Assembly (NCBI GenBank): GCA_006384855.1
Contig: VCJN01002824.1
Location: 1-64,000, forward strand
Origin: Tetraselmis striata
Taxonomy: Eukaryota; Chlorophyta; Chlorodendrophyceae; Chlorodendrales; Chlorodendraceae
DNA length: 64,000 nucleotides
Reading direction: 5' to 3'
A program made the translations under genes and the position numbers. The notes below the pieces were generated by a model. It searched no databases. It was not told the DNA's origin and was given only the letters and a program-made list of their open reading frames with translations. Below, piece after piece: positions 11,317 to 53,187 of this stretch (positions are counted from its first letter, which is position 1; the number at the start of each line of letters is the position of its first letter).

Positions 11317-12570
11317 CTAGCAGCAGAAACGCAGCATAGCAGCTCGCTGCCGAGGCCGCGCCTTTGCGCAACCTGTGCGATGCCCACACGACACTGGGGG
11401 GCGGCTGGGCGCCCGCCGCCAGGCGGGCGTCCCGCAGCCAGTCAGTGGGAGTGGCTGAAAAGGACCAAGCGGCGGAAGGCTCCAGCGGGGAGACGCTCCA
11501 AAACTTGGTCGGCAGGCCGGCGCCGGAGAGAGGTCGGCAAGAAGGTGGGGCTCGGCCGCCATCGACACCGTCCAGGGCGCTCCAGAGCCCGGGCGCGGGC
11601 GCCGTGCGCGGGACGGGCGGCCCAGGTACTGTACACTGTACTGCAGTGACGGCCGTACCGCCAGGGATTGGCCGCAGGCCTTAGCATAACAGCGAAGATA
11701 CTGGTACTTGTCGTACGCTGTCAGACCCCGCTGCTCCGCGAGGCCGCGGGCGGCGGTGTCGTCGGTCAGAATCCACAAGCGAGGCTCGTCGCCGTCGCGT
11801 GGGGGTGGCTCCAGACCGGAAAGGGGGACTTGACCGAAGTAGGCGTAGTCGACGTACTCGAGCTCGGTGTCGAGTGCGTCCAGCTCAGCAGGAAGGGGCT
11901 CTTGCGCTCCTTGCTCACCACCCCCGGGCGCAGGCGCGCCCGCGGGAATGGCTGGCTGGGTGCCTTCGGGAGGAGGCGATAGCACGGGAGGAGCCAGTCG
12001 AGCGAGTAAGGCGGCCGTAGCCGCCTCGAACTGCCCGGCCAGCCGCTTCTCCAGGGCTATTGCTTGGGCCGTCAGGCGTTTTGCCAATTTGGTGTCGTCG
12101 CCGGTCAGAATCCACAAGCGAGGCTCGTCGCCGTCGCGTGGGGGTGGCTCCAGACCGGAAGGGGGGACTTGACCGAAGTAGGCGAAGTCGACGTACTCGA
12201 GCTCGGTGTCGAGTGCGTCTAGCTCAGCAGGAAGGGGCTCTTGCGCCCCTTGCTCACCACCCTCGGGCGTAGGCGCGCCCGCGGGAATGGCTGGCTGGGT
12301 GCCTTTGGGAGGAGGCGATAGCACGGGAGGGGCCAGTCGAGCGAGTAAGGCGGCCGTAGCCGCCTCGAACTGCCCGGCCAGCCGCTTCTCCAGGGCTATT
12401 GCTTGGGCCGTCAGGCGTTTCTCCAATTCCGCGATGGATGCCGCAGTGGCGCCGCCCGGGGCGTCGTCGACTAGGGCGTCTTCCGGTACAGGACGCGGGG
12501 GCATCCTGCTGTCGCGGGGTGGGGAAGGTGTAGCGTCTCGGGAGGCTGAGGCTCGGGTCCGAGTCGGCAT
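11317..12570 (-). CDS. Gag-like protein of the small retroelement, internally duplicated
   Basis: The open frame from ATG at 12570 gives about 417 residues. After a Pro/Ser/Arg-rich head (MPPRPVPEDALVDD) come a short coiled-coil (IAELEKRLTAQAIALEKRLA), a Pro-rich linker, an acidic segment (ELDALDTELEYVD) and PRLWILT. This block is then repeated. After the second copy, AARGLAEQRGLTAYDKYQYL resembles the capsid-like part of algal gag proteins. The last 130 or so residues are Arg/Pro-rich and probably read out of the original frame. No zinc knuckle, protease or polymerase is present. It lies between the two direct repeats, which is the main reason for the gag call. Confidence 0.5.
   Translation of the reverse strand: MPTRTRASASRDATPSPPRDSRMPPRPVPEDALVDDAPGGATAASIAELEKRLTAQAIALEKRLAGQFEAATAALLARLAPPVLSPPPKGTQPAIPAGAPTPEGGEQGAQEPLPAELDALDTELEYVDFAYFGQVPPSGLEPPPRDGDEPRLWILTGDDTKLAKRLTAQAIALEKRLAGQFEAATAALLARLAPPVLSPPPEGTQPAIPAGAPAPGGGEQGAQEPLPAELDALDTELEYVDYAYFGQVPLSGLEPPPRDGDEPRLWILTDDTAARGLAEQRGLTAYDKYQYLRCYAKACGQSLAVRPSLQYSVQYLGRPSRARRPRPGSGAPWTVSMAAEPHLLADLSPAPACRPSFGASPRWSLPPLGPFQPLPLTGCGTPAWRRAPSRPPVSCGHRTGCAKARPRQRAAMLRFCC
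11764..12441. repeat. 339-bp in-frame tandem duplication inside the gag-like ORF
   Basis: 11764-12102 and 12103-12441 are two copies with very few differences. The period of 339 is divisible by three, so the coiled-coil/acidic module of 113 residues is duplicated without frame loss. Confidence 0.9.
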
Positions 12571-12614
12571 AGAGTAAGCTGACACTCTGCTCGACTGCTA
12601 GAGTCGAGACTGCT

Positions 12615-38850: not shown

Positions 38851-41020
38851 TTATACGGTACTTGAACTGGATCCGTCATGTACTTACATTGGACTCGCAC
38901 TGATATTTACGGTATAGCTGTATCTTCTCCGCCTAATACCCGTTTACTGCCGGTTATTGGCGATTATTGGCAATTTCTTAACTCATCATCTAGGGGAGCT
39001 GCTCATCGGAGCGGTACCTGTCCGCGGACTGTACGTCCCGAGGCCACTCGAAGCGTAAAAGTTTCCACGCGCAGACGGGCGCGCACGCTAATATCATTTT
39101 TGCATAGTGCGCGCCTACCTGCACGTGAGGTCATCACGAGACGACACTGAGTGGCGGCCGATAAGATATGCTCGAGCTACATGTAGATAGGTAGAGCTAT
39201 GCCGCAGCATCCGTCATATCCGCGTGCGCGTGAAGAACGGGACAGCCAGGCCCTTCCGGGTCGGCTAGGGTTAAAGCTAGGGTTCCATACCCGGTTGAGA
39301 CCACAGGCAGGGCACCTGATTGGTTAGGGTTCCATACCCTGGCCATAGCCCTGAGCGAGGCGCAAGGAGACATACATACCGGAGATCAGAGACCCGCCCA
39401 AGCACACCTCGGCGGGACTGCTAAGGGAACTCAGATAGTACCTCTAATCGGGACCTCTAACAGGGACCCCTAAGGTAGACTACCTGCAGAAGACGAAGTA
39501 CTGCACTGCTGCTGGTACAAGGCGCAAGACTCACTGTAGCCGCGGCCAAGTAGTAGTATAGGACTTAATGAGTACAATTAGACAAGGGCAGTGCGTAATG
39601 CGTCTGGCGCGCGGTGCGCGCACGGCGCGCGTGCTATTAGCACTTAGCGTGACGTGCGGCCGCCTTGCCATGGCCGCGATCGCGTGCTTATAGAGGGCCG
39701 CCGACTTCTGGCGCTCCCTCTTCCCCCTTGTCTTGCCTGTGTGTGCCTGTGTTTGCCTATGACAGGCATAGGCAAGAGCTTGTGTACGGGGCGGAGACGG
39801 TGTAAGAGACGGAGATCGGCTTGAGGAACGAGGGCCAAAGGTAATCACGGTAGCCTGCGTGCTTGTCGTACGGTCGCACGCGTGCCGCTCGCTGCATCGT
39901 GCGCGCGTGCTGCTGGTGGTGCTGGGTTGTCACCATTCGACCCGGTACCGACGTAAAGTACTGTAGGAACGATTGATAGCCGCGACTAGCACTGCATAAA
40001 GTACTGCACGGCGTGGCCGTGACCTGTGGTGAGAGGCTTCATTGCCACTGGCATTCACCCCCCTGAGTACGGGCAAGACCATCAACGCTGGTCTAAACTA
40101 AAGCCCTATAGGCGTCTGATAGGTGCATGTAGTGACTTAGGTTCGCGTTCAGACAAGGGGGAAGAGCTCTCGTGGGTGAGAGTGAGTGCTAGAGGTGAGG
40201 AAAGGTCTAAGGGGTGTTGGAGACAAACCTATATGGGAACTGCTCGTAAGAGTACATAAGACTCGAAGGGTGAGGGGACAAAACCCACTAGAGGGTGGGC
40301 CAGGAAGGCCCTCGGACTAGTGAGGTGACGAGGTGTGGAGTGGTTCGAGTTTCCTTTTGGGTTTGGTGACGAGCGAGAGGCAAAGGGTTTGCCACCTCTG
40401 GGGACACTTTGTGTTTGTGCCTGAGCGAGCCGTGAACAACGGGGCATTGAGTGGGCGAAGGGCACTAACGCCAAGCTAAGTGTGTTGCTGAGTGGCTCTT
40501 TCACCCAGCGCGGCCTCTGAGTGAGAGCCACGGCGTGCCGACGCTCTTTCACCATCCCGCGGGAGGTGAGAGAGCGGCGTGTTCCTTTGGGTACCAATTG
40601 GCCTGCTCCGGTTCTTTTGGCCTGCTCCGGTTCTTTTGGCCTGCTCCAGTTCAACGACCTGCTCCAGTTCAACGGTTCAACGACGACAGGTGGTAGGAGG
40701 GAGGCAGGGCGTGAGCCCGGGAGTGGGAGGGCGCCGGCTTCACAGTCGTGTGTCAGTGCCGGAGTGCACTTGGAGGGAGCGGCATCGCCGCCTGAGGGCC
40801 CCGGCGCGGGTGACGGCTGGCGGGTGCGTGGCTCAGCTCGGTGCCAACGTCTTCGTGGCGGTGGTGTGGATCTGAGGTTCATCGGCACTGAGTTATACCG
40901 GAGGTTGGAACTGTTCGGGTATCGGCTTGAGACGGGTGTGCGCCAACACCGGCGAGGCGACGCGGCAGCGGCCCTCAGATTTCTGAGGCCGCGTGGACGC
41001 AGCCCCACTTCTGAGCTTGA
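38851..41020. other. Region between recombinase remnant and gag
   Basis: No coding frame is supported. A 391-codon open frame on the minus strand (40229-41404) is Pro/Ser/Arg-rich, lacks motifs and overlaps gag antisense. If the gag-DNMT element has a 5' terminal repeat it should lie here, but I found no direct repeat of it downstream of 45288. A TGGTGAGAGGCTTC word near 40026 could be a primer-binding site; unproven. Confidence 0.4.
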
Positions 41021-42802
41021 GGGCCCCGGCGTGGGCGACAGCCAGTGGACGCGCTGGAAAGCGCAGAGGGCGGCTTTGCCCTGGGCGACCTGTGGGCAGC
41101 ACTGGACGAGCTGGAGGAAGACCAGCTGATCGAGGAGGTCGTGGAGGGGCTGCTGAACGACGTAGACGCATCCAACCAGGAGGGTGAGGAGTGCGATCAC
41201 GAGAACGCGTACGCATACAGCAGCAGCGAAGCAGAGGACGGCGGAGACGACGAGGACGAGCTCTACTTTTCCCCGCTGCCAACACGCAACCCTAGGCGAG
41301 ACACTTTGTACGGACACGCGTACTTTGTGGACGACGCAATGAGCGACGATGAGATGGAGCCGCGGAGGGGCAAGGGCTCCAGCGGGAGGTTGTGGGCGGG
41401 TCACGAGAAGGCGACCTCAGAGCACACGTTTGAGACGTGGAAGAGCTCTACGGACTGTGCCATGGAGAAGGAGCGACAACATGCATTTGACCGCAACAGA
41501 CCGTTCAACGAGATCCACGAGGTTCACGTGCTGCGGAGCCGCATTCAGCCAAAGTACTTGGAGTCGCTAGAGACTACACTCATCAGCCGGGGCATCAAGT
41601 ACGAGGACTCGAGGATCGTACGGAGGCTGGAAGGCGCAGAACGGCTCGACTACTACCCCCGGTTGTTGGACGGCATGTGGGAGGAGCTCGTCAACATCAC
41701 CAAGCAGATCGAGCTGCATTCGGAGCGATACAGCAAGTGCCATCGCTCGCATGGTGAGACTGTGCGCGATTTCCGCAATTTGTTGCTAACGCACACCAGG
41801 GTCAAGAACCTGGTCACCGAGGAGACGACTCGCATTGTGGAGATATCGCGCGTCAACGTGGAGTTCATCGAGCGGGCCTGGGGCAAGACGCGTTTCAGCC
41901 CCCGCATCAACTTCGCACAACAACAACTCGTGGACTACACGATGGACACCCAGGTGGACAGGACCTGGGAGATGGCCGAGTGGCTCGACAAGCAGGAGCG
42001 CGGCAGCATTCACATGCGCGCTCACTCGCGCGTCCAGAGCGGAGGCGGCAGGCGGGGTTTTGACCACGAGGAGCACAACAGCCGCGGTGGCGGTCGCGGC
42101 AGCAACAGCCGTGGTCGTGGAGGCAGCCACGGAGAGGGTGGCAACTACCATCGACGTGGAGGTGGAGGAGGTGATCGTGGAGGCGGGCGCACGGAGAGGA
42201 GCGCTTACGCCCGTGATGGAGATGATGGTGGGCGAGGCAGCCACGTCAATGAGGCAGGTTGCTATGGTTGTGGGTCGAAAGATCACTACAAGAGCGACTG
42301 CCCTCTGTGGAGCAAGACGTGCTCTGAGTGTGGCAAGAAGGGCCACATTGCCAAGCGGTGCTGGAAGGCCAACTTTGATCTCCGTCCGGAGACCGCCATG
42401 GCAGCAACCAATCCTAGGGAGCACATCAGAGTGCGCGAGGAGCCCAAGAAGCCGGACCGCAAGTCGTGCATGATGTGTGGCAAGGATGCGGGCCATACAA
42501 CTGAGGAGTGCGGGAAGCTGCGCAAGTTCGTTGCGAACCTGCAGGCGACAGACGGCCACGAGCCCAAGCACCCGCCGCTCAACGGCTATGCTCAAGTCGT
42601 CGGCAGCGAGGAGGGCGAGGTGGTGGGGCTGGCAGCAGCCAGCCAGTTGCGCCCACAGCGTAAGAGCACGGAGGCTCAACGCCATGGCGTCAACACGGTG
42701 CGCATGGAGGACGGGGAGCGTGAGGCCAGGCAGCGGAGGCTGCCTCGCGGCTTCACCACCCCATCGATGGAGATGGCGCAGCAAATGCACAGCCGTACAT
42801 AG
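41021..42802 (+). CDS. gag: Gag polyprotein with RGG region and three CCHC-type knuckles
   Basis: Open from 41021 (stop at 41018) to TAG at 42800; the first in-frame ATG is near 41339, so translation may begin there, at a GTG such as 41045, or via an upstream splice. After an acidic head (SSSEAEDGGDDEDELYF), 41400-42030 is an all-helical capsid-like region (RIQPKYLESLETTLISRGIK, FAQQQLVDYTMDTQVDRTWE). 42040-42240 is RGG-rich (RGGGRGSNSRGRGG). Then come CYGCGSKDHYKSDC and CSECGKKGHIAKRC, both perfect CX2CX4HX4C knuckles, and a third, CMMCGKDAGHTTEEC, with one extra residue (CX2CX5HX4C). This is a nucleocapsid layout. About 590 residues at most. Confidence 0.8.
   Translation, partial: GPRRGRQPVDALESAEGGFALGDLWAALDELEEDQLIEEVVEGLLNDVDASNQEGEECDHENAYAYSSSEAEDGGDDEDELYFSPLPTRNPRRDTLYGHAYFVDDAMSDDEMEPRRGKGSSGRLWAGHEKATSEHTFETWKSSTDCAMEKERQHAFDRNRPFNEIHEVHVLRSRIQPKYLESLETTLISRGIKYEDSRIVRRLEGAERLDYYPRLLDGMWEELVNITKQIELHSERYSKCHRSHGETVRDFRNLLLTHTRVKNLVTEETTRIVEISRVNVEFIERAWGKTRFSPRINFAQQQLVDYTMDTQVDRTWEMAEWLDKQERGSIHMRAHSRVQSGGGRRGFDHEEHNSRGGGRGSNSRGRGGSHGEGGNYHRRGGGGGDRGGGRTERSAYARDGDDGGRGSHVNEAGCYGCGSKDHYKSDCPLWSKTCSECGKKGHIAKRCWKANFDLRPETAMAATNPREHIRVREEPKKPDRKSCMMCGKDAGHTTEECGKLRKFVANLQATDGHEPKHPPLNGYAQVVGSEEGEVVGLAAASQLRPQRKSTEAQRHGVNTVRMEDGEREARQRRLPRGFTTPSMEMAQQMHSRT
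42800..42802 (+). promoter_or_regulatory. Lone in-frame amber codon between gag and pro
   Basis: ACA TAG CTG ACG: the frame is open for 1779 nt before and 1308 nt after this single TAG. A C follows the stop, a context tolerant of readthrough in some viruses and elements. It may be a programmed readthrough site or a single inactivating mutation. Confidence 0.4.
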
Positions 42803-44113
42803 CTGACGGCGAAGCTCACCAGCGCAGCTCAGAGCGTCACGGTGCCTGTGTCACTGGCCAACGGCGGTGGACAGCCGCGCATGCCAATGATGGAGATCGC
42901 CAAGCGGCTGGTCAAGCACGAGCCCGTGGAGGATGGCTGGGAGAAGCATGCTGTCATGCGTGCTCTGGAGAGCAAGCGAGTCTCCATCAGCTTGATGGAG
43001 GCTTACCAGCTCGAGCGCAGCGGCGGCGGGATGATGGAGAGCGTCATGGCAACAGCATGGGGCGGCGGTGCCCTGAGTACCGAGCCGATCAGCAGCCACG
43101 CTCACTCAGCCAGGACCTCGAGCGGGGAGCGCGCCTTCGAGGCAGCGCTGATGATGGTGGAGGAGGTCGCTGACCAACAAAGCGGCGGCAAGTCTACCGC
43201 GGAGGAGAAGACCGCTGGCGGAGAGACTGAGACTGAACGGTCTTTTGCCATTTACCGGCCAGGTCAACTCGCGAGACAACGCGAGGAGGAGGAAGATCGC
43301 AAGCGTGCAAATGCGCAGCGCAATGCCAGCACGGCGGTTGAGGAGGCATCAGTATGTCGCCGCAGCGGCAAGTGGGAAACCGCCACTGACTATCGACGCA
43401 GTGCTACTGAGGCAGACATCAGGGAGCAAGCACTACGGCTGCCTAAAGGGTCTGAGACCCGACGCTGCCTGGAGCAGCAGGCGGAAGTCGCCAACAAGGG
43501 CATTTTTGCCCTTCAGCCCACGGGGGCTGAGGCGAAGGAGCAGCCGGAGACGGCTCGGCTTGACACCATCACGTGCGAGTTGCACGCCAACAATACCCTG
43601 CTGCAGTGCGAGACCATTTCCGACGGCGGCAGCAGCCACACCCGCATGAACGCATCAGCGATGGAACCAAGCGCGGCGGAGGCCGTGGTGAAGGGCGCTG
43701 GCGGGTGGGTAGACGTCGACATGGTGGTGGTGCTCGCCAATGGCAAGCGCTCATGCGAGCAGCAACGACGATTGCGGGATGGCGTGGTCTTCACGCTTCG
43801 GGACCCCGTCACCTCAATCATGGCAGCTCATCACGCACCGCGCGTGTACGAGAATGGAGGCGAGGCACCGGGCTTGCTGCTCGGTGGACCCACCATCACA
43901 GCCCTCGGGCTGCGACCGGACCCGGCGACCATAATCTGCACTTTCCGCGCACCCAACCGACCAGCCGGCAGAGTGCCACTGCTCAGTCAAACGGCGTGGG
44001 AGCGGCGGGTCCGCGAGCACCAACCTGTGGTGCGCGTGGAGAGAGCGAGCTACTGCCATGGGGTGGAGCTCGGCGATGATGAGATGGGGGAGGAGAGTGA
44101 AGGGGGGCAGTGA
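42803..44113 (+). CDS. Retropepsin-like region downstream of gag
   Basis: Same frame as gag, 436 codons to TGA at 44111; the first ATG inside the segment is near 42881. The first 260 residues are charged and helical (RQREEEEDRKRANAQRNAST). The C-terminal part is aspartic-protease-like: CETISDGGSSHTRMNASAM gives a DGGSS in place of the usual D-S/T-G-A/S, preceded by a beta strand, and GLLLGGPTITALGL resembles the second hydrophobic-G motif. Only one catalytic Asp per chain is expected, as retropepsins dimerise. The third position of the DTG triad is Gly as expected, but the middle one is Gly too, so activity is doubtful. No polymerase follows. Confidence 0.5.
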   Translation: MTAKLTSAAQSVTVPVSLANGGGQPRMPMMEIAKRLVKHEPVEDGWEKHAVMRALESKRVSISLMEAYQLERSGGGMMESVMATAWGGGALSTEPISSHAHSARTSSGERAFEAALMMVEEVADQQSGGKSTAEEKTAGGETETERSFAIYRPGQLARQREEEEDRKRANAQRNASTAVEEASVCRRSGKWETATDYRRSATEADIREQALRLPKGSETRRCLEQQAEVANKGIFALQPTGAEAKEQPETARLDTITCELHANNTLLQCETISDGGSSHTRMNASAMEPSAAEAVVKGAGGWVDVDMVVVLANGKRSCEQQRRLRDGVVFTLRDPVTSIMAAHHAPRVYENGGEAPGLLLGGPTITALGLRPDPATIICTFRAPNRPAGRVPLLSQTAWERRVREHQPVVRVERASYCHGVELGDDEMGEESEGGQ

Positions 44114-45288
44114 CGTGTCTCACAGCCACGCCGCCCACGAACCCTCACGGCGTGACGTGCAAGAGTCCAAGACCTGCGAGCCGGCAGACCTACCGCCTTT
44201 GCGGGAGGTGCAGAGCCTGCAGCGTCACGGGCTGGCGAGGCTGAGCACCCGCGAAGAGGGCATCAGCCTGTACGAGCCATGTGGCGGAGGCTACGTTGCC
44301 GTGCTGAATGCCATGCTGGCCAACGGTCAGAAGGTGGCCAGATACCGGCAATCGGACATCGACCCGGCAGCCCGCAAGGCCGCTGGGCAGCGTGTTCAAG
44401 GAGCTCAGTAGGAGATATCCGGATCTACTACCAGCTAGCGCGATCAAGGGGTGGGACTCGATCCCACAGGACATCACGGCGATCACAGCGGAGGACGTGA
44501 GGCGCCTGCCATACATAGACATAGTGGGGTGTGGATGGCCTTGCCCAGGCATGAGCAGAGCCAATCGCAACGCGCTGGGATTGCGCGACCGGAGGTCACG
44601 TTTGCTCTTTCACGTGGCCGCGTTCATCGAGAAGCTCGAGGAGAAGCAGCCCACCGGCGTGGGGTGGCTGCTGGAGAACGTGGATACGAGCGGAGACGAG
44701 AGACTGTACATCAAAGAGTCTGAGAAATACATCACGAAGATCATCGGGAGAGCGCTCGTGATTGATGAGGCGGGCTGTGGAGCGAATCATCACCGAGTGC
44801 GACGATTCTGGACGAACATGGGGGACGTGGAGAGACTGAAGTTGGCGTGGGAGAGGCGGGCGGACATGCAGCCGCGACTGCTGCGAGATGTGCTGCCACC
44901 GCACCTACGACCGCATGTCAATCTGCCGACACCACCCAACGGAGTTCGCGTCAACAAACCAGGACAGCCATGCGCGTTGCCAACGATCTTGGCGCGACCG
45001 GACTCAGATGCCTACTCCGGCGAGGGCGCCGGCATGTTGTTCAACATCAACACGGGCGAGTGGGAACGGCCCACTGTCCACCTGAAGGAGGAGCTTTTCG
45101 GTTACGAGCCGAACGTCATTCACGGCATATCGCTGCCGGACCATGAGCGCCTCATAGGCAATGCCATGGGTCTGCACAGCGTCGCGTGGATCGTCGGGCA
45201 GCTCTTCGTGGAGCAGCAGCGACTGAGAAACCTGGAGGAGCTGGAGCGCGCAGCCCGGGCTGCCCAGCACTGTGAGATTCAGATGTGA
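44058..45288 (+). CDS. DNMT3-like cytosine-5 DNA methyltransferase, frame-split
   Basis: Two overlapping frames make one methyltransferase. Frame 44058-44411 carries the SAM-binding N-terminus (GISLYEPCGGGYVAVLNAML, QSDIDPAARKAA). Frame 44308-45288 continues at VFKELSRRYPDLLPASAI after a +1 shift near 44390-44400. It holds motif IV GCGWPCPGMSRAN (44524-44562; catalytic Cys in PC), motif VI LLENVDT (ENV at 44673-44681), motif VIII HRVRRFWTNM, and motif X GNAM (45157-45168) within HERLIGNAMGLHSVAWIVGQL. HRxRxFWxN is close to the DNMT3 form. The enzyme would transfer methyl from SAM to cytosine C5 in DNA. Motif I is altered (CGGGY instead of FxGxG), so activity is uncertain. No PWWP, ADD, BAH or chromo domain is present. 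It overlaps the protease frame by 56 nt. Confidence 0.8.
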
Positions 45289-46572: not shown

Positions 46573-46944
46573 CGGCCGAGGTGGAGAAACTAACACCCAG
46601 TCGACGACCGCCTTCCGCAGCAGTCAACGACACATTGGAGGCGAGGAGCAGCGCGCCACTACTATTTATATGCACGTATTGTCAAGAGCTAGTCGGTGCG
46701 GCATTGTGTCGGTGTAATTTCGCAATGTTTATTGTTGAAGTAGCACGGCGTAATGGATACGGCGAGTGAATCCGGGATAATGTGTGCGACGAATGTGCGC
46801 GCGCAGCGTTGTGCGGCGGTGTGCGGCGGTGTGCGGCGGTGTGCACCGATGTTAATATAGTGTGAATATTATATCGGCCGTAGACGATCAGGTCTGGCAG
46901 CACCGCCCGTGCTTGTAAATAAGCGACAATGGGTCTAGTCTCCC

Positions 46945-48115
46945 GCTAGTCTGTGCACCGCAAGTGCACTCCGCAAGCCTCGCCTCCATCCGCGTCGGAA
47001 CCGGTAGTAAGTGTTGTTGTGTGCGCACATCGTGACAACATTACACGGTGGCAATTGCAATTATTAGCGGTGGATAATGTGAAGGCGTTTTCGAAATCGA
47101 CAGAGAATGAGGCGGTGCTGGCGGAGTGCATTGGCGGTGCACAGAATAGCGTGTTGCTGGGGTTTTGGCTGCATCGGACGCCGTATTCCCACCCATCCGG
47201 CACGGAATGTCCGGTTTTCACACATTTGTGTGTTAATAAAGCAGTGTGAATATTACGCGTCTTTTACGCCGGGTGGATGGGCATCCGGCGTCCGATGCAC
47301 CCCAATTATTTGCAGCACGCTACTCTACGCACCCCCAACGCACTCCGCAAGCCTCGCCTCCATCCGCGTCGGAACCGGTAGTAAGTGTTGTTGTGTGCGC
47401 ACATCGTGACAACATTACACGGTGGCAATTGCAATTAGCGGTGGATAATGTGAAGGCGTTTTCGAAATCGACAGAGAATGTGGCGGTGCTGGCGGAGTGC
47501 ATTGGCGGTGCACAGAATAGCGTGTTGCTGGGGTTTTGGCTGCATCGGACGCCGTATTCCCACCCATCCGGCACGGAATGTCCGGTTTTCACACATTTGT
47601 GTGTTAATAAAGTGTGAATATTACGCGTCTTTTACGCCGGGTGGGTGGGCATCCGGCGTCCGATGCACCCCAATTATTTGCAGCACGCTACTCTACGCAC
47701 CCCCAACGCACTCCGCAAGCCTCGCCTCCATCCGCGTCGGAACCGGTAGTAAGTGTTGTTGTGTGCGCACATCGTGACAACATTACACGGTGGCAATTGC
47801 AATTAGCGGTGGGTAATGTGAAGGCGTTTTCGAAATCGACAGAGAATGAGGCGGTGCTGGCGGAGTGCATTGGCGGTGCACAGAATAGCGTGTTGCTGGG
47901 GTTTTGGCTGCATCGGACGCCGTATTCCCACCCATCCGGCACGGAATGTCCGGTTTTCACACATTTGCGTGTGAATATATAGAGTGTGAATATTACGTAG
48001 GCGTCTTTTACGCTGGGTGGATGGGCATCCGGCGTCCGATGCACCCCGAATCTCACCAACACGCTACTCTACGCACCCCCAACGCATTCCGCCAGCCCCC
48101 CCTCTTTCCGCGCAG
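46945..48115. repeat. Tandem array of 368-bp hairpin-containing units
   Basis: Three nearly identical units at about 46945-47244 (partial start), 47245-47612 and 47613-47990, plus a diverged partial unit to about 48115. Landmarks recurring at 368-bp spacing are GTGAATATTACG, GGCATCCGGCGTCCGATGCA, TAGTAAGTGTTGTTGTGTGC and CACGGAATGTCCGGTTTTCA. Inside each unit, about 75 bases near the start (GGCGTCCGATGCACCCC ... CGCACTCCGC) are an inverted repeat of 75 bases near the end (GCGGAGTGCATTGGCGG ... GCATCGGACGCC). Each unit therefore folds as a large hairpin, like a MITE that has been tandemly amplified. Confidence 0.85.
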
Positions 48116-50406: not shown

Positions 50407-53187
50407 CTAGTGCCTATGCGGCTGCGCCGCCTCCGCCGCATGCAGACTCTGCGGGCTCACCAGCACCGCCACCTCAGTCATGCGGCCCTGCATCCCGCAG
50501 CCCGCCGCCGTCAGCCAGATCAGAGGTATCCAGAAGCCAGTGCTGGGGTTGTTGCGGCATGACCGCATAGTTTTCAGCGGCTGCCGTCCACAGCTTGTAA
50601 TGCATCCCTTTCCGCCGATTCCGCTGTATGCGCTGTCTTGGCGCCGCGCTGCCCCGGCCGCCGCTGTCTTGGCGCCGCGCTGCCCCGGCCGCCGCTGTCT
50701 TGGCGCCGCGCTGCCCCGGCCGCCGCTGTCTTGGCGCCGCGCTGCCCCGGCCGCCGCTGTCTTGGCGCCGCGCTGCCCCGGCCGCCGCGCCTTGGCGCCG
50801 CGCTGCCCCGGCCGCCGCGCCTTGGCGCCGCGCTGCCCCGGCCGCCGCGCCTTGGCGCCGCGCTGCCCCGGCCGCCGCTGTCTTGGCGCCGCGCTGCCCC
50901 GGCCGCCGCTGTCTTGGCGCCGCGCTGCCCCGGCCGCCGCTGTCTTGGCGCCGCGCTGCCCCGGCCGCCGCTGTCTTGGCGCCGCGCTGCCCCGGCCGCC
51001 GCTGTCTTGGCGCCGCGCTGCCCCGGCCGCCGCTGTCTTGGCGCCGCGCTGCCCCGGCCGCCGCTGTCTTGGCGCCGCGCTGCCCCGGCCGCCGCGCCTT
51101 GGCGCCGCGCTGCCCCGGCCGCCGCGCCTTGGCGCCGCGCTGCCCCGGCCGCCGCGCCTTGGCGCCGCGCTGCCCCGGCCGCCGCGCCTTGGCGCCGCGC
51201 TGCCCCGGCCGCCGCGCCTTGGCGCCGCGCTGCCCCGGCCGCCGCTGTCTTGGCGCCGCGCTGCCCCGGCCGCCGCGCCTTGGCGCCGCGCTGCCCCGGC
51301 CGCCGCGCCTTGGCGCCGCGCTGCCCCGGCCGCCGCGCCTTGGCGCCGCGCTGCCCCGGCCGCCGCGCCTTGGCGCCGCGCTGCCCCGGCCGCCGCGCCT
51401 TGGCGCCGCGCTGCCCCGGCCGCCGCGCCTTGGCGCCGCGCTGCCCCGGCCGCCGCGCCTTGGCGCCGCGCTGCCCCGGCTGCCGCGCCTTGGCGCCGCG
51501 CTGCCCCGGCCGCCGCGCCTTGGCGCCGCGCTGCCCCGGCCGCGCCTTGGCGCCGCGCGGGGTATCGAGTCCTCCCCTCCCTAGTGAGCGCGTCCACCTG
51601 CGCCTTGCGCTCGGGGCCGTCCTCCTCCGTCACCACATTCTGCAACCCCCACCGCGTGACGAACCACGCAGCTCCTTGCATGCGCTTGTACATGTGCCCA
51701 AGCACCGCCTAGGGACGCGAAGCTCCTTCTCGGTCATGATCGCCTTCACCCGGGCCTCCTCGAGCAGCGGACCGGCGTTAAGAATGGAAAACGTTTCCAT
51801 GTGGTGCAAGCAGTCCTCCATGACCCAGCCGGACTGCACCGTCACCTTGCCTGACCCTGCAGTCATGGAGGGGAAAGCCGTCACGCCCACGCCCACGCCC
51901 ACGCCCACGCCCGGGGGGGGGGGGGGGGGGTTACCTTTCGATTCTTGGACACTGCAAACGAAGGGCGCAACCCGCGTTCAAAGTTGCTGGGTATCGGGAC
52001 TAAAGCCTGGCGCCGGTCTTCCTGCTTCATAGCTCGGAATCCAATGTGGCCCTGCACGGTGACAAATTTCCTCCAGAAGTCCCTTCCCAAGCCAAAAAAA
52101 AACAGGTGGAACGGCGCGAGGGGGAAGAGGTTGATCATGTTGACATAGCCCAGGACCACATGCACATGGCACACGCCATGGCAGCCAGTGTTCTGCTTGG
52201 CCTCCGCCAGCCGGGTTGTGTTGAACGCACGCCGGGCAAGGCGCGTGATTCACTGGACAAGTCATCGCCTTGATGGACGGTTACCAAGCGAGCCTCCCCG
52301 TCCGCATCCACAGTGGGGTGCTCCTGGGCAGCCGCCATAGCCTCCACAACCTGCCACGCCGACCGGGTGGGTGCGTGTGATTCCATACAACCGCAGTTGA
52401 GTGGTGCCACCAGCACGCAGGCCGGGCCCACTCACCTCTGAACGCAGAAGGTCCACAATGTCACCGTCCTCGAAAACAGCGCGCCACTGGGTCGCCCCGC
52501 CGTAGTCCTCCAACACCCACTCGGTAACGACGCCGGTTATCACGCCGTAGTGCCATACTCCCCGGAACTTCTTGGCGATGACCTTCATGTAGAAGTCGCC
52601 GGGATCGCCTTTCCATATCACGCCCTCATCGCGGGTTCGACGCCCGCCGGCGGCCACGCAGGCGCGTCGATGTCCATACCGTCTTCGCCAACGGGGTCCT
52701 CCCCCACGCCCATCACATCGTCCACCTTCGAGCCGCCGTCGTCCGAGACCGGCGCCGGCGGGCCGTTTCCGACGGCTGCAGCTACTCCTGCTGCCGCGCT
52801 TGTTGCTGCTGTTGCTGCTGCTGCTGCTGCCGCCCCTGCTGCTGCTGGTTGTGATAAGGCGGCCTTGCGGCGCAACTTAGCCGCACGCTTCAACGAGTGG
52901 CTACAGTTCGGGTATTTCCGGAAGTGCCGCTCTCGCGCCGTCCTTTCACTACTACCCGTCACGATGCCGTGGCAGTGCTTGCATGTGTACACGCCATCCT
53001 TCGACACACTCGCTATCCATCCCTTTGCCGGCATGCCTGCTGCCGCGCGCGGGGGGCGGGGGGGGGGGGTTGAGAGTTGGGGTGGATGTAACCCACCACC
53101 GGCAGGCAACACAGATGCGAGTGCGCGGCTGTCCGCGCTTGATTCAACGGTGAGCGGCGGTGACCGTGAGGCGACCCCGTACTTCAT
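50407..53187 (-). CDS. Transposase-like gene with zinc finger and Tudor-like domain
   Basis: Minus-strand segments in order: 53187-52618 (ATG at 53187) with a BED-like finger YTCKHCHGIVTG then RERHFRKYPNCSH; 52657-52430 with a Tudor-like fold, DFYMKVIAKKFRGVWHYGVI and WRAVFEDGDIVDLLRSE; 52370-52270 (VVEAMAAAQEHPTVDADGEA); 52170-51950 (VLGYVNMINLFPLAPFHLFF, GRDFWRKFVTVQGHIGFRAM); 51850-51720 (WVMEDCLHHMETFSILNAG, LLEEARVKAIMTEKELRV); 51705-51590 (GHMYKRMQGAAWFVTRWGLQ); and then through the minisatellite to 50407. The finger plus Tudor-like domain plus helical body is the build of some algal DNA-transposon proteins. I could not place a DDE triad. The finger and Tudor parts are in different frames near 52640, so an indel or intron lies there. 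A (CACGCC)n plus poly-G stretch (51882-51930) sits in a probable intron. Confidence 0.45.
50632..51560. repeat. 30/31-bp GC-rich minisatellite, about 30 units
   Basis: The unit is CTTGGCGCCGCGCTGCCCCG followed by GCCGCCG and then either CTGT (31 bp) or CGC (30 bp). The two unit lengths occur in blocks: 31-mers dominate 50632-50780 and 50880-51090, and 30-mers dominate 51090-51560. No stop codon exists in any plus frame or in the long minus frame, so very long spurious ORFs arise. The last units at 51480-51555 carry a C-to-T change and a 3-bp loss. Confidence 0.97.
51882..51911. repeat. (CACGCC)n microsatellite
   Basis: Five hexamers followed at once by a poly-G tract (51913-51930). Confidence 0.95.

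What the first reader, a model, noticed from the sequence alone, without database searches (positions are those of the whole stretch)
41021..45288. Retroelement that encodes its own cytosine-5 DNA methyltransferase
A gag with three zinc knuckles and a retropepsin-like region are followed on the same strand by a DNMT3-like methyltransferase with motifs IV (PC), VI (ENV), VIII (HRVRRFW) and X (GNAM). A self-methylating element could hide from or manipulate host silencing, or protect its DNA intermediate. DNMT capture by retrotransposons is known in some algae, but this gag-protease-DNMT order with no polymerase is distinctive.
Basis: partly seen in the sequence, partly recalled or inferred. Interest (0 to 1): 0.88.

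Follow-up and report, generated by a model that had tools for sequence, protein, structure and literature searches.

The report
Algal jumping gene carrying DNA methyltransferase
This stretch is a broken copy of a jumping gene of a green alga that carries its own DNA-methylating enzyme, with the enzyme's code split by a reading-frame shift; dozens of fuller copies, and other jumping-gene families with the same kind of enzyme, lie elsewhere in the genome.

The parts
39200..40152 (+). 5' repeat A (about 953 nt), begins TGCCG
   Evidence: blastn to L033, L034, L037, L038; 43 genome matches to 39200-40200 (capped)
41021..42802 (+). ORF1, gag part with zinc knuckles; ends at a TAG (42800-42802) private to this copy among those read in full
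   Evidence: zf-CCHC; open through this point in L033, L037, L039
42260..42511 (+). three CCHC-like knuckles (third with non-standard spacing)
   Evidence: translation; pattern in L033; Pfam two stretches
42803..44113 (+). ORF1 continued: protease-like region (SDGGSSHTR near 43622), then frame break
   Evidence: D-G-G in 29 of 30 loci; no Pfam or PDB match
43935..44411 (+). ORF1 3' part: MT motif I (YEPCGGG, about 44271) and motif II; stop TAG 44409-44411
   Evidence: same end in 30 of 30 loci
44388..44399 (+). inferred +1 shift site, CAG CGT GTT C(AA)
   Evidence: frame relation, switch of constraint, alignment with unsplit relatives
44308..45267 (+). ORF2 5' part in +1 frame: MT motifs IV (PC), VI (ENV), VIII (HRVRRFW), X (GNAM); the open frame runs to 45288 through non-homologous sequence
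   Evidence: PF00145; homology ends at 45267
45267..45268 (.). 3' truncation point: RT, RNase H, integrase, PHD and the B-A-B repeats are missing
   Evidence: no B repeat in the window; no second A repeat

Best explanation
Shown: the window holds a decayed, 3'-truncated copy of an ~11.5-kb multi-copy retrotransposon family with Ty3/gypsy enzymes and a DNMT3-like cytosine-5 MT between the protease-like region and RT. Shown: in the 34 copies read across the point, MT motifs I-II are in the Gag frame and motifs IV-X in the +1 Pol frame. Inferred: a programmed +1 shift near CAG CGT GTT C joins the halves, so that the MT is made only within the rarer Gag-MT-Pol fusion, at the dose of RT and integrase and in the same particle. 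Inferred: it methylates cytosines of the new cDNA before or at integration, so that the cDNA resembles host DNA or is shielded. The internal B-A junction (CGGCA-GC-TGCCG) and the 4-bp duplications suggest a junction-bearing template whose ends are cut and inserted by the DDE integrase. My odds: family identity 0.97; +1 shift used in translation 0.75; cDNA self-methylation as the selected role 0.4.
For: 130 MT matches in the genome; 39 of 43 near-full copies with RT downstream, 37 of 43 with gag upstream. ORF2 has RT, RNase H, H2C2, rve and PHD. Frame relation kept in 30 of 30 close loci and in 4 of 4 diverged copies. Among the 30, variable sites sit at third positions of the Gag frame before the join (5/5/13) and of the Pol frame after it (19/9/44). 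pN/pS 0.17 for motifs IV-X and 0.26 for motifs I-II. Unsplit copia MTs align across the join. A-coding-B-A-B repeats and 4-bp target duplications. DNMT3 is the best match by profile and by fold of a copia relative.
Confidence: 0.72

Rival explanations
1. The MT is made as two chains: ORF1 supplies motifs I-II, and ORF2, started at its own ATG right after the TGA that opens its frame, supplies motifs IV-X; the halves pair, as in naturally split bacterial C5-MTs (recalled).
For: ORF2's frame opens with TGA-ATG in 29 of 30 loci (ATG seen in the translations).
Against: Before the join, variable sites among the 30 loci follow the Gag frame, not the ORF2 frame, also within the overlap (1/3/5 against 3/5/1; few sites), so the first ~30 ORF2 codons look like unused reading. 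RT and integrase would also need internal initiation.
Confidence: 0.12
2. The MT works on something other than element cDNA: host chromatin at the insertion site, nearby silencing, or RNA.
For: No CpG loss or CpG-transition excess in the element; a PHD finger in the same polyprotein could aim it at chromatin.
Against: Its place in the Gag-Pol polyprotein puts it in the particle with the cDNA (inference). Nothing here tests the target.
Confidence: 0.3
3. The shared frame split is an old lesion: the MT has been dead since a defective ancestor spread, helped by other elements.
For: Many copies are broken by stops or gaps.
Against: pN/pS 0.17 after the join and 0.26 before it; open ORF2 of 1600 aa or more in 16 of 43 copies and ORF1 of 1129 aa in 12 of 78 gag rows; same split in copies with 68-83% identity.
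Confidence: 0.1
4. Accident: a host MT gene lies next to a gag fragment.
For: None found.
Against: Repeated gag-MT-RT linkage.
Confidence: 0.005

Closest known systems
KnitGypsy-Dnmt3 of the charophyte Klebsormidium nitens (PMC5890265; parts 1-4 of 7 read, and passages)
   Same: Gypsy domain composition, DNMT3-like domain in a polyprotein, DIRS-type repeat layout, many intronless copies under purifying selection.
   Different: Here the MT is split over two frames; chlorophyte host; 4-bp target duplications and a PHD finger (not mentioned in the parts read); sequence relationship not testable here.
SymbioDIRS-Dnmt3 and SymbioLINE-Dnmt of dinoflagellates (PMC5890265)
   Same: DNMT carried by retrotransposons; A-coding-B-A-B repeats in the DIRS kind.
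   Different: Those are DIRS with tyrosine recombinase, or LINEs; here gypsy (rve integrase) and copia.
DNMT3-bearing LTR Copia elements, mentioned in PMC12344493 (passages only)
   Same: Copia polyproteins with a DNMT3-like MT, as in family B here.
   Different: The paper refers to streptophytes and dinoflagellates; the word Tetraselmis does not occur in its main text.
DIRS1-like retrotransposons (PMC3266345, passages)
   Same: An MT domain in pol and an internal circular-junction arrangement.
   Different: They use a tyrosine recombinase and leave no target duplication; their MT is of another kind (adenine type, per PMC5890265).

Membership tests
C5-cytosine methyltransferase | motifs I, IV (PC), VI (ENV), VIII, X in order | tested here: met
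   PF00145 above cut-off; motif I is divergent (EPCGGG)
DNMT3 | closest to DNMT3 rather than other C5-MT families | tested here: inconclusive
   best profile and fold match by a small margin; 12-row tree 77/80 with no DNMT1/5/6/CMT/DRM rows
Ty3/gypsy | RT-RNaseH-integrase order with rve core | tested here: met
Ty3/gypsy | simple LTR at both ends, PBS and PPT | tested here: inconclusive
   A repeats at both ends but B follows the second A; no clear PBS or PPT by eye, not searched by a program
Retropepsin | D-T/S-G active site | tested here: not met
   D-G-G in 29 of 30 loci, no match in the remaining one; no Pfam or PDB match
DIRS order | A-coding-B-A-B split repeats | tested here: met
   5 of 7 copies have the second B; 4 of 7 have two full A repeats
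DIRS order | tyrosine recombinase, no target duplication | tested here: not met
   rve integrase and no tyrosine recombinase among the Pfam matches of ORF2; 4-bp duplication in 4 of 4
KnitGypsy-Dnmt3 | gypsy domains + DNMT3-like MT + DIRS-type repeats | tested here: met
   compared with the text of PMC5890265
KnitGypsy-Dnmt3 | common descent with the K. nitens element | not testable with these tools
   no K. nitens sequence in hand; protein searches returned Tetraselmis rows and one metagenome protein
Ty1/copia (family B of the same genome) | protease-integrase-RT order with RVT_2 | tested here: met
   4 polyproteins scanned (C104 read as two overlapping frames)

The most novel reading that the evidence does not exclude
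A retrotransposon lineage uses the Gag-Pol frame junction itself to build its DNA methyltransferase: the whole enzyme exists only when the ribosome shifts frame, so it is made and packaged in step with RT and integrase. The same polyprotein ends in a second MT-like domain of amino-MT type, so one particle may carry two kinds of DNA-modifying enzyme. Related MTs have moved between gypsy and copia superfamilies inside one algal genome.
Probability: 0.3. Interest if true: 0.88.

Novelty: new variant of a known kind. Interest (0 to 1): 0.73.

Why it matters
Cytosine methylation is a common weapon against transposons, so elements that carry the enzyme are a paradox, reported so far for few lineages. 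Here a chlorophyte has many such elements in two superfamilies, with recent insertions (A repeats 98.8-100% identical) and a frame-split enzyme whose dose would be tied to that of the polymerase. Split and unsplit families in one genome make the question of what retroelement DNMTs are for directly testable by long-read methylation sequencing.

Tried and rejected
A flanking LTR pair was sought in the window and not found; the 3' truncation explains it. Splicing as the cause of the frame change: gene models P0002 and P0008 join exons across the region and drop motif IV; judged annotation artefacts, because the dropped part is constrained coding sequence. CpG depletion and CpG-transition excess: none. 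Stimulatory RNA fold: none clear. Retropepsin homology: none. Viral contigs: no relative of the window MT; one at 30% identity to the copia MTs (not followed). The ORF2 C-terminal domain has no Pfam, PHROG or meaningful PDB match (a standalone relative); its structure job was interrupted and not repeated. Tree of 12 MT rows: retroelement MTs group at 86/86 only. Host DNMT genes were not resolved. only waited. Unanswered, machine busy: the genome search; structure. VIA-align families that are not listed are not excluded by it.

Full report
What was checked. The finding covers 41021-45288. ORF listing and Pfam confirm a gag with zinc knuckles (41021-42802) and a C5-methyltransferase (MT; 44308-45288) on the + strand. 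MT motif I (YEPCGGG) and motif II lie just upstream in another frame (43935-44411). Relatives in the protein database are Tetraselmis striata gene models by their source names (8 of 8 hits, 10 of 10, 12 of 13, the other a metagenome protein); two of them carry RVT_1 beside the MT. So the host is that chlorophyte or very near it (taxonomy; the code Tetstr1 read as this species is recalled). The genome behind the window (G000) is 224 Mb in 2903 contigs.

A multi-copy family. The MT ORF has 130 matches in the genome (lower bound, 123 of 379 candidates scored). I took the 43 rows with at least 285 residues matched at 94% identity or more, window copy included. Of these, 39 have RT within 2.5 kb downstream on the same strand and 37 have gag within 3.5 kb upstream. 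Sixteen of the 43 lie in stop-free frames of 1600 aa or more. Gag has 78 matches (74 of 401 candidates scored), 12 of them in stop-free 1129-aa frames. The window copy is one of four without RT. Its homology to fuller copies runs from 39200 to 45267 and stops there, so the missing polymerase is a truncation.

Layout of fuller copies. Seven copies were fetched on both sides. ORF1 is open over 1129 aa in 3 of 7 and ORF2 over 1753-1771 aa in 7 of 7. ORF1 holds Gag, a protease-like region with D-G-G, and MT motifs I-II; ORF2 holds MT motifs IV-X, RT, RNase H, H2C2 and rve integrase, and a PHD finger. They overlap by 104 nt, ORF2 in the +1 frame. The 5' repeat A is about 953 nt. At the 3' end the order is B, A, B; the two B copies align over 51-72 nt in 5 of 7. 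Four of seven have two full A repeats, 98.8-100% identical; these four all show an exact 4-bp target duplication, ends TGCCG...CGGCA, and lengths of 11,527-11,604 bp. The other three have an inverted A after the second one, no second A, or only a 198-nt match. The inner B-A junction reads CGGCA-GC-TGCCG, like joined element ends.

The split methyltransferase. In the 30 best-scoring loci the ORF1 frame ends at ...QRVQGAQ-stop in 30 of 30, and the ORF2 frame opens after a TGA at the same place in 29 of 30. Four diverged copies (68-83% identity) keep the same frame relation, with stops of their own. Among the 30, variable sites fall at third positions of the Gag frame before the join (5/5/13) and of the Pol frame after it (19/9/44). 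With the diverged copies the pattern holds after the join (5/7/14) but not before it (15/13/16). pN/pS is 0.17 for motifs IV-X in 30 copies, 0.26 for motifs I-II in 30, and 0.16 for the last 200 codons of ORF1 in 22 (8 dropped, frame not open there). Unsplit MTs of copia elements align across the join and place the shift at CAG CGT GTT C. A programmed +1 shift is the simplest reading; it is inferred. The RNA after it folds no better than shuffles.

Other families in the same genome. Long open frames at C2193, C1860, C2444 and C104 are Ty1/copia polyproteins with the MT upstream of the protease, and downstream of the gag knuckle where that part was scanned (C2193, C2444). C663 and C1014 show an MT followed directly by a protease motif. 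A PF00145 search gave 128 matches, 39 in frames of 1000 aa or more (123 of 337 candidates scored); of these 39 only C2193, C663 and C1014 were read. A second gypsy family (39 of 114 RT rows, 43-46% identity) also has an unsplit MT before RT in the one copy read (L058; hhalign probability 98.9; Pfam alone only E 0.014). The window MT is 22-27% identical to the copia MTs and 23% to the L058 MT.

Function. Place in the polyprotein and constraint argue for a role in the life cycle. The published proposal for such elements is methylation of their own cDNA (PMC5890265, parts 1-4 of 7 read). I adopt it as most likely, but inferred. Against a strong effect: CpG observed/expected 0.94 in the element and 0.92 in the rest of the window, and CpG transitions among copies not raised (ratio 0.80).

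Novelty. DNMT capture by retrotransposons is reported for dinoflagellates and a charophyte (PMC5890265), and Copia elements with DNMT3 are mentioned (PMC12344493, passages). KnitGypsy-Dnmt3 shares gypsy domains and DIRS-type repeats. In the listings of my ten searches (open-licence library only) I saw no title or abstract start on such elements in Tetraselmis or on an MT split by the Gag-Pol frame; (retrotransposon, frameshift, methyltransferase, gypsy, PHD finger) returned none. Hence a new variant of a known kind.

Noticed in passing
L034:4585-5313 (C-terminus of ORF2 in the family; missing from the window copy): A second MT-like domain after the PHD finger, with FDPWAGHGST (motif-I-like) and TSPWF (DPPY-like), suggestive of an amino-MT as in DIRS elements. 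Relatives at 37-55% identity lie in 33 listed loci as frames of 217-370 aa (list cut; 26 of them listed mainly over residues 175-260); one was read (L062). No Pfam, PHROG or PDB support.
   Followed up: partly
L032:5442-6926; genome C1151:26911-28395 and C1687:67884-69368: Some copies end in a repeat A followed at once by a 534-nt inverted piece of A.
   Followed up: no
G000 contigs C1993, C776, C1647, C2337, C355, C1455 (325-aa frames) and C1230 (three 341-aa frames): Standalone C5-MT ORFs of bacterial or viral type, strongest PF00145 matches of the genome; C1993 read as L057.
   Followed up: partly
L059 (G000:C2009:28900-30750): A 600-aa intronless MT of bacterial look; the contig may be contamination.
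   Followed up: no
window 46944-48112: Three or so tandem copies of a ~370-bp unit, 87-99% identical, with inner inverted repeats.
   Followed up: no
window 50600-51546: Long array of ~30-31-bp GC-rich repeats, open in several frames on both strands.
   Followed up: no
window 11317-12597, minus strand: 426-aa ORF with an internally repeated segment, perhaps part of another element.
   Followed up: no
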